49,223 nucleotides of DNA from a virus. Shown piece by piece: positions 3,262 to 3,795 of the stretch. Position numbers and translations under genes: made by a program. Below the pieces are notes generated by a model. That model was given only the letters and a program-made list of their open reading frames with translations, was not told the origin of the DNA and made no database searches. The DNA lies in the IMG/VR virus record IMGVR_UViG_3300023184_000191, positions 1 through 49,223 of that record. One strand, written 5' to 3'. Numbering within the stretch: the stretch's first letter is position 1; every line of letters starts with the position of its first letter.

Positions 3262-3795
3262 GATTGAATTTGAGAGTAGTGCCACCACGTTATTGGCACC
3301 ATTTACCTGATTGCACTAGTCCGGACAGGTTGTCGGTACGTCACTTGAGATTCGTCCAGCGTAGTCTCCTTTACAGACCCCTGCAGTTCCCCGCAGGGTG
3401 GGAGTTGAACCCATTTGCCTTTTACTACACAGTACCTTCGAAGAATACTGCCTAGCGTGACTTCACTTGCTGACACTCTCAAAACTGAATTTGTTATATT
3501 GTGGATTTTGTCAGTTTATTGTTCCACAACTTCACGACGCAATAGCAACTTAATGCCGCACTGCTCGATACCCTACCCATTATGCGAACACTTTGGGATC
3601 AAACGGGATAACAAAACTTGGAGCCTAGTGCTAGTACGACCTAGCAACATCCCTTGAGCGAGAGCGTAGGAACTTAATCTACGGGTTTGACACCTCTTGG
3701 GTTGAACAGTCAGGACAACTACTTGCATTCACTCCGCAACACTTGTTCAAGGTGTTGTTTCACTACTAGCGTTCATTTCCAACTAGACATAAACT
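3262..3795 (-). ncRNA. candidate large structured RNA with H-type pseudoknot
   Basis: 534 nt between tRNA-Asp and tRNA-Arg without a credible gene. Two interleaved perfect 7-bp helices form a classic pseudoknot: AAACTGA (3482-3488) with TCAGTTT (3511-3517), and TTGTGGA (3499-3505) with TCCACAA (3523-3529).

Other stems are GCTAG/CTAGC (3630-3634/3641-3645), a 9-bp CAACACTTG hairpin near 3738-3758, and CCTGC/GCAGG near 3380-3400. A T-arm-like GGGTTCAACTCCC occurs at about 3399-3415 but no tRNA can be built around it. Candidate families are GOLLD, ROOL or something new. Ends are set by the flanking tRNAs. Confidence 0.5.

What the first reader, a model, noticed from the sequence alone, without database searches (positions are those of the whole stretch)
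3262..3795. 534-nt structured RNA candidate with a perfect H-type pseudoknot
Two interleaved 7-bp helices (3482-3488/3511-3517 and 3499-3505/3523-3529) plus other stems sit in a gap with no gene. Size, tRNA neighbours and phage context fit large ornate RNAs (GOLLD, ROOL) but the pattern may be new.
Basis: partly seen in the sequence, partly recalled or inferred. Interest (0 to 1): 0.76.

Follow-up and report, generated by a model that had tools for sequence, protein, structure and literature searches.

The report
Self-pairing RNA in phage tRNA arrays
The gap between two tRNA genes holds not one 534-nt RNA but three RNA modules on the opposite strand, one of them an undescribed, widespread jumbo-phage RNA whose two self-complementary loops keep changing sequence yet stay self-complementary, which suggests that copies of the RNA stick to each other.

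Summary
The two helices exist as described, but on the wrong strand and across a module boundary; the second helix is not conserved. On the minus (tRNA) strand the gap 3262-3795 is three back-to-back modules: E1 (3795-3619, a tRNA-like RNA ending in CCA), E2 (3618-3487) and element A (3486-3262). None matches Rfam 15. Element A is a new RNA family: about 156 IMG/VR contigs besides the window, one copy per genome where tested, in large-phage tRNA arrays, usually starting at the upstream tRNA's CCA and ending a few nt before the next tRNA. Its closing stem is kept in 67/67 distinct elements with seven pair combinations. In 51/51 representatives (<=85% identity) the loops of two hairpins hold >=6-nt palindromes. 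The P8 palindrome takes 12 different sequences; its inner positions covary across two nucleotides, which no single strand can pair. The same argument supported intermolecular bridges in OLE and GOLLD. Most likely: RNA cut out by tRNA processing that self-associates through two kissing loops. Oligomer size and function are unknown; no expression or biochemical data exist. GOLLD lies in the same array (1825-2291).

The parts
3262..3486 (-). Element A: ~220-nt structured RNA, member of a new family, 5' AGUUUUGAGAGUGUCAGCAAG...CUACUCUCAAAUUCAAUC 3'
   Evidence: Homologues in about 156 IMG/VR contigs; CM R1 hit 128 bits at 3341-3486; this piece alone folds with z -2.96
3476..3483 (-). 5' strand of closing stem P1 (UUUGAGAG)
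   Evidence: Pairs with 3269-3276; kept in 67/67 distinct elements with seven pair combinations
3269..3276 (-). 3' strand of P1 (CUCUCAAA)
3457..3461 (-). P2 5' strand (GUCAC), pairs with GUGAC 3340-3344
   Evidence: 97.7% of cells paired, mostly invariant
3340..3344 (-). P2 3' strand (GUGAC)
3436..3443 (-). Palindrome CUUCGAAG at the tip of hairpin P3: proposed homotypic contact 1
   Evidence: Palindrome >=6 nt in this hairpin in 51/51 representatives; alternatives GUUCGAAC, UUGUUCGAACAA, UCUAGA, AUGGCCAU, CUAAUUAG
3400..3412 (-). P4 hairpin with T-loop-like sequence GGGUUCAACUCCC
   Evidence: 96.4% of cells paired, with compensatory changes
3319..3326 (-). Palindrome GUCCGGAC in the loop of hairpin P8: proposed homotypic contact 2
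   Evidence: 100% self-complementary with covarying pairs; 12 different palindromic hexamers at this place
3487..3618 (-).
   Evidence: E2 32-mer in 7 contigs, directly before A in four of them
3619..3795 (-). Module E1: ~177-nt tRNA-like RNA: acceptor-like stem GUCUAGU (3782-3788)/ACUAGGC (3623-3629), then U-CCA (3622-3619), preceded by a T-arm-like hairpin that covaries
   Evidence: 17 contigs, 14 distinct sequences; no Rfam match
3184..3260 (-). tRNA-Arg(acg), downstream neighbour; RNase P cleavage at its 5' end would set the 3' end of A (inferred)
3796..3870 (-). tRNA-Asp(gtc), upstream neighbour
1825..2291 (-). GOLLD RNA (conserved 3' part) in the same array, with tRNA-His(atg) 2156-2229 inside
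   Evidence: RF02032, 187.7 bits, E 2.2e-51

Best explanation
Element A (minus strand, 3486-3262) is a phage-encoded structural RNA carried in the tRNA polycistron. Tested here by sequence comparison: it is single-copy, packed between tRNAs, has a conserved multi-stem fold on the tRNA strand, and keeps two self-complementary loops whose sequences change while self-complementarity stays. Inferred: it is released by the tRNA-processing enzymes, which cut after the upstream CCA and at the 5' end of the downstream tRNA, and its copies then pair with each other through the P3 and P8 loops. Two different two-fold-symmetric contacts per monomer would give a closed ring or cage (dihedral symmetry) or a chain, rather than a simple dimer. 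It would thus work like the RNA-only assemblies GOLLD, ROOL and OLE, on a smaller scale (~220 nt). What the assembly does for the phage is not known; a scaffold or enclosure acting during infection, beside GOLLD, is the reading I prefer.
For: Family: pattern scans give 54, 36 new true and 58 contigs (with 58, 90) and the CM adds 8 in loci fetched by E1 alone. Single copy: one strong CM hit per record in all records searched that have any. Context: A starts at 0-3 nt (two at -1) from a tRNA 3' end in 43 of 59 cases, after 17 different tRNA labels, and the next tRNA starts ~4-7 nt after its end in most. Fold: P1 kept in 67/67; 5' domain 87.1% of cells paired vs 77.3% shuffled, covariation 0.285 vs 0.125, slid controls <=0.094; 3' domain 99.7% paired vs 82.6%, covariation 0.447 vs 0.121, slid <=0.064. 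Strand: lower folding energy on the tRNA strand in 47 of 51. Palindromes: both loops in 51/51 representatives at <=85% identity; in 46 aligned representatives 43 have a palindrome at the P3 column and 41 at the P8 column, next best column 10, about 2 expected. Inner pair of the P8 palindrome is CG 21, UA 6 with two nt between the partners; outer pair GC 14, CG 7, UA 6; central dinucleotides are CG, GC and UA. Elements met through E1, not through A, also carry both palindromes. The logic is that used for OLE L9.3 and GOLLD L21a (PMC12286853).
Against: No transcript, native-gel or structural data. Sequences share ancestry and recombine between domains, so counts are not independent events (parsimony gives 16 changes of the P8 palindrome on the 5'-domain tree, some of them domain swaps). 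In the 5' domain the number of pairs with a change on both sides does not exceed the shuffles (13 vs 12.1). The P3 palindrome varies less and its outer pairs can form within one hairpin. A single loop-loop duplex is not much stronger than shuffled loops in most examples tested. Known only from metagenomic contigs; not found in five cultured large phages.
Confidence: 0.72

Rival explanations
1. Element A is a structured RNA acting as a monomer (tRNA-array processing element, decoy or protein-binding sRNA); the palindromic loops serve something other than self-pairing, for example binding a symmetric protein.
For: It is placed exactly at the tRNA 3' end and has a T-loop-like P4 hairpin; no oligomer data exist.
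Against: A protein site would keep its sequence; here 12 different palindromic hexamers occupy the P8 loop and the inner pair covaries. No second region with a changing complement was seen.
Confidence: 0.18
2. The palindromes act at the DNA level (restriction or methylation sites, cruciforms, recombination boundaries between shuffled modules) and the RNA is incidental.
For: Modules recombine: P5 hairpin classes occur with both 3' domain types; many of the hexamers are known restriction sites (own knowledge).
Against: P1, P3, P4, P8 and P9 covary as RNA with G-U pairs tolerated on the tRNA strand; palindromes sit exactly in RNA hairpin loops and are not enriched elsewhere (0.011 per position, chance 0.016).
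Confidence: 0.04
3. Self-cleaving ribozyme in the tRNA array, like the HDV-like theta ribozymes of phages, trimming tRNA 3' trailers.
For: The element starts right after the CCA; theta ribozymes are linked to phage tRNAs (PMC10879173, title and abstract).
Against: No Rfam match up to E 10; the closing-stem architecture is not the HDV nested double pseudoknot (own knowledge).
Confidence: 0.04
4. One reading: one 534-nt ornate RNA with an H-type pseudoknot.
For: Both helices are present.
Against: Second helix not conserved; relatives have A without the other 309 nt; E1 and E2 occur apart.
Confidence: 0.02

Closest known systems
GOLLD RNA (Rfam RF02032)
   Same: Large-phage tRNA arrays; variable domains; intermolecular contacts supported by switching palindromes (PMC12286853); physically in the same array in the window, and present in 16 of 49 A-bearing records
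   Different: GOLLD is ~800 nt with another fold; A is ~220 nt, has no CM similarity and lies at a separate place
ROOL RNA
   Same: Prophage/phage RNA near tRNA islands; homo-oligomeric cage with symmetric kissing loops (PMC12286853)
   Different: No ROOL match in the gap up to E 10; different size and conserved motifs
OLE RNA
   Same: RNA-only dimer; L9.3 loop switches between palindromes GGCC, GAUC, AGCU, the same kind of evidence (PMC12286853)
   Different: OLE is a much larger RNA of another fold, not from phage tRNA arrays (own knowledge); no match here
Theta (HDV-like) ribozymes of phages
   Same: Close to phage tRNAs
   Different: No known ribozyme core; no Rfam match
tmRNA and permuted tmRNA
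   Same: Present elsewhere in this window (8856-9341); E1 shares a tRNA-like CCA end
   Different: A has no acceptor stem, CCA or tag frame; only 8.7 bits to tmRNA_permuted for a homologue

Membership tests
GOLLD (RF02032) | Covariance-model match over the 150-bit gathering score | tested here: not met
   No GOLLD match in 3255-3800 up to E 10; the array's GOLLD is at 1825-2291
ROOL | Covariance-model match | tested here: not met
   Not among matches up to E 10 or E 5 for 400-5400
tmRNA / permuted tmRNA | tRNA-like domain plus tag reading frame; CM match | tested here: not met
   ARAGORN finds tmRNA only at 8856-9341; no Rfam match in the gap
Any Rfam 15 family | Match at gathering score | tested here: not met
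   for E1
RNA-only homo-oligomers (functional class of OLE, ROOL, GOLLD) | Self-complementary loops whose palindromes switch with covariation impossible within one strand | tested here: met
   criterion from PMC12286853
RNA-only homo-oligomers (functional class of OLE, ROOL, GOLLD) | Oligomer seen in vitro or by cryo-EM | not testable with these tools
   needs experiment
HDV-like / theta ribozymes | Self-cleavage at a defined 5' site | not testable with these tools
   needs experiment; no CM match

The most novel reading that the evidence does not exclude
Jumbo-phage tRNA arrays are nurseries of self-assembling RNAs: element A builds a closed RNA-only particle from ~220-nt subunits through two switchable palindromic contacts, and it is one of several new modules (A, tRNA-like E1, E2, and the long-stem elements at 3874-4032 and 2799-3004) shuffled between arrays and released by tRNA-processing enzymes beside GOLLD.
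Probability: 0.3. Interest if true: 0.92.

Novelty: new variant of a known kind. Interest (0 to 1): 0.8.

Why it matters
Only a few natural RNAs are known to assemble into RNA-only particles, and the function of the phage ones is open. A further such family, about a quarter of the size of GOLLD, easy to transcribe and with palindromes that can be swapped at will, would make the question of what these assemblies do for phages directly testable. It also shows that the 'empty' spacers of large-phage tRNA arrays hold unannotated conserved RNAs that Rfam 15 does not list.

Tried and rejected
Whole-gap folding (z about -1 on both strands). Hidden or intron-bearing tRNA in the gap by ARAGORN with intron and low-score options: only weak pseudo-hits. 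Rfam at relaxed thresholds: best is tRNA-Sec at 19.2 bits, E 0.36, at 3393-3470, probably caused by the T-loop-like P4. Relatives through the neighbouring protein 5390-6532: none; through DNA polymerase: many, two with the element. BLAST of A and of the 309 nt against cultured phages: nothing above chance. CM in Phosso, Atu_ph07, Vibrio 2.275.O, CBB and Rctr197k: only insignificant scores. A mobile or repeated element was rejected: one copy per genome. Two hits of the type-2 scan (L183, L209) were discarded as unrelated DNA. Papers on structured RNAs in jumbo-phage tRNA arrays: only GOLLD/ROOL and theta ribozymes turned up; most preprints and subscription papers are not held.

Full report
Source and setting. 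The window is a 49,223-nt IMG/VR virus record. Its DNA polymerase (36564-39224, minus) is 51% identical to Sinorhizobium phage Phosso and 48% to Agrobacterium phage Atu_ph07, and about 80-97% to many metagenome contigs, one of them 364 kb, so it is a jumbo-phage fragment. Nineteen tRNA genes and a permuted tmRNA, all on the minus strand, lie in the first 10 kb, together with GOLLD at 1825-2291 (187.7 bits).

The observation. The two helices are present at the stated coordinates. A 7/7-bp H-type pseudoknot within 60 nt arises in 18 of 2000 dinucleotide shuffles of the gap, and 3 are seen in the whole window against 1.65 expected. Neither strand of the whole gap folds better than shuffles. No Rfam family matches convincingly even at E 10.

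What the gap is. In two relatives (G014, 364 kb; G001, DNA polymerase 97%) the tRNA-Arg(acg) is preceded by only 211-229 nt, and these align to 3262-3486 of the window. That 225-nt piece alone folds with z -2.96 on the minus strand; the remaining 309 nt do not stand out (z -0.61). The 309 nt are two further modules that occur in other arrays: E1 (3795-3619) in L200, L110, L144, L203 and more, and E2 (3618-3487) in L142, L222-L227. The second helix uses the first bases of element A, is absent in the L142 group and short by one pair in the L223 group. The pseudoknot is therefore a junction accident; its strand was also the wrong one.

Element A as a family. A pattern made from invariant stretches of the three-way alignment hits 54 IMG/VR contigs; a pattern from one of its two 3' domains hits 56, of which 36 are new and true; a 5'-end variant hits 58; the covariance model R1 finds eight more in loci that had been fetched by E1. 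That is about 156 contigs besides the window, up to 524 kb long. Two short MAG contigs also carry it. Where whole records were searched there is one strong copy per genome. Carriers have DNA polymerases from 98% down to 29-39% identity, so the element occurs across distant phage lineages. GOLLD is present in 16 of 49 carrier records.

Context. In 59 cases with an upstream tRNA in reach, 43 begin within 3 nt of the tRNA 3' end, most at 0 nt (CCA|AGUUUUG), after 17 different tRNA labels; the next tRNA usually begins 4-7 nt after the element (for the second 3'-domain type that script ended the element about 30 nt early, so its 34-37 nt read as 4-7). The window is an exception upstream, with E1 and E2 in between. 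That the RNA is freed by tRNA-processing enzymes is inferred from this.

Fold. P1 closes the element (UUUGAGAG 3483-3476 with CUCUCAAA 3276-3269). In 67 of 67 distinct elements P1 is kept, with seven combinations such as UUGUAAG/CUUACAA, UUGAGAG/CUCUCAA, GUUAAAG/CUUUAAC and GUUGUAG/CUACAAC. For the 5' domain (43 sequences) 87.1% of cells pair against 77.3% when shuffled, covariation 0.285 against 0.125, slid structures at most 0.094; the count of pairs with changes on both sides is not above shuffles. For the 3' domain (27 sequences) 99.7% pair against 82.6%, covariation 0.447 against 0.121. Folding is stronger on the tRNA strand in 47 of 51 representatives. Domains recombine: hairpin P5 classes occur with both types of 3' domain.

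Palindromic loops. In 51 of 51 representatives clustered at 85% identity, hairpins P3 and P8 each carry a self-complementary stretch of at least 6 nt. Because a window of that width would often hold one by chance, the anchored test matters more: in an alignment of 46 representatives 43 have a palindrome at one P3 column and 41 at one P8 column; the next best column has 10, about 2 expected. Elsewhere in the element palindromes are no more frequent than chance. The P8 hexamers are GCCGGC, CUCGAG, CGGCCG, UCCGGA, GUGCAC, GUCGAC, GCUAGC, CCCGGG, GCGCGC, GGUACC, GGCGCC and CCUAGG; P3 shows UUCGAA, UCUAGA, UGGCCA and UAAUUA cores. In the aligned P8 loops the inner pair is CG in 21 and UA in 6, with only two nucleotides between the partners, and the outer pair is GC, CG or UA in 14, 7 and 6. 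Such inner pairs cannot form within one strand. The 2025 cryo-EM study of OLE, ROOL and GOLLD used the same argument for the bridges at OLE L9.3 and GOLLD L21a, whose palindromes switch (PMC12286853). Elements found through E1, not through A, show it too.

Mechanism. Shown by comparison: a conserved, single-copy, tRNA-packed RNA with two self-complementary loops under selection for self-complementarity, not for sequence. Inferred: homotypic kissing of both loops, hence a dihedral ring or cage, or a chain. Unknown: stoichiometry, partner proteins, role in infection. Reservations: related and recombining sequences, no expression data, no cultured carrier found, and only part of the literature is searchable here.

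Comparison. Element A is not a member of GOLLD, ROOL, tmRNA or any Rfam 15 family. By anatomy and genomic setting it resembles GOLLD and ROOL, at about a quarter of the size of GOLLD. I rate it a new variant of a known kind.

Noticed in passing
window 3619-3795 (-): Module E1: ~177-nt tRNA-like RNA with a 7-bp acceptor-like stem, discriminator and CCA; the stem changes in compensating fashion (GUCUAGU/ACUAGAC, GGUUAGU/ACUAAUC) and a T-arm-like hairpin covaries (GCUGU/ACAGC, AUCGU/ACGAU, GUCCU/AGGAC). 17 contigs, no Rfam match. Possibly a second new RNA family.
   Followed up: partly
window 3874-4032 (-): Element B: 21-bp perfect closing stem around ~113 nt, fold z -6.2; 93% and 80% identical segments in G001 and G014 and a spacer cluster in 7 loci.
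   Followed up: partly
window 2799-3004 (-): Element C: 15-18-bp closing stem, fold z -4.9; homologous segments in L098 6356-6519 and L099 3204-3368.
   Followed up: no
window 4440-4530: About 22-bp inverted repeat GCTATATGAAAACACACTTCAG...CTGAAGCGTGTTTACATATAGC beside tRNA-Glu; part conserved in G001.
   Followed up: no
window 1825-2291 (-): GOLLD RNA with a complete tRNA-His(atg) gene 2156-2229 inside; an atg anticodon with A at position 34 is unusual.
   Followed up: no
window 8856-9341 (-): Permuted tmRNA, 486 nt, tag ANDEQFALAA; in the relative G001 it is 328 nt, tag ANDSQFALAA, and scores best as beta_tmRNA.
   Followed up: no
L103 1716-1824, L109 7108-7215, L110 12753-12834: Segments between tRNAs with tRNA-like acceptor and T-arm sequences but odd or enlarged anticodon regions, not called by ARAGORN.
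   Followed up: no
L103 1637-1715, L140, L147 2096-2188: tRNA with CUA anticodon (called Pyl; possibly an amber suppressor) just upstream of element A.
   Followed up: no
window 614-824 (-): Spacer with a small ORF (621-806, 61 aa) conserved in three other loci between tRNA-Asn and tRNA-Thr: likely a real small protein gene inside the array.
   Followed up: no
L221 (PV764938.1, about 33.5-34.0 kb): Cultured Sinorhizobium phage Phosso carries a GOLLD RNA (186.6 bits), a possible laboratory system for these RNAs.
   Followed up: no
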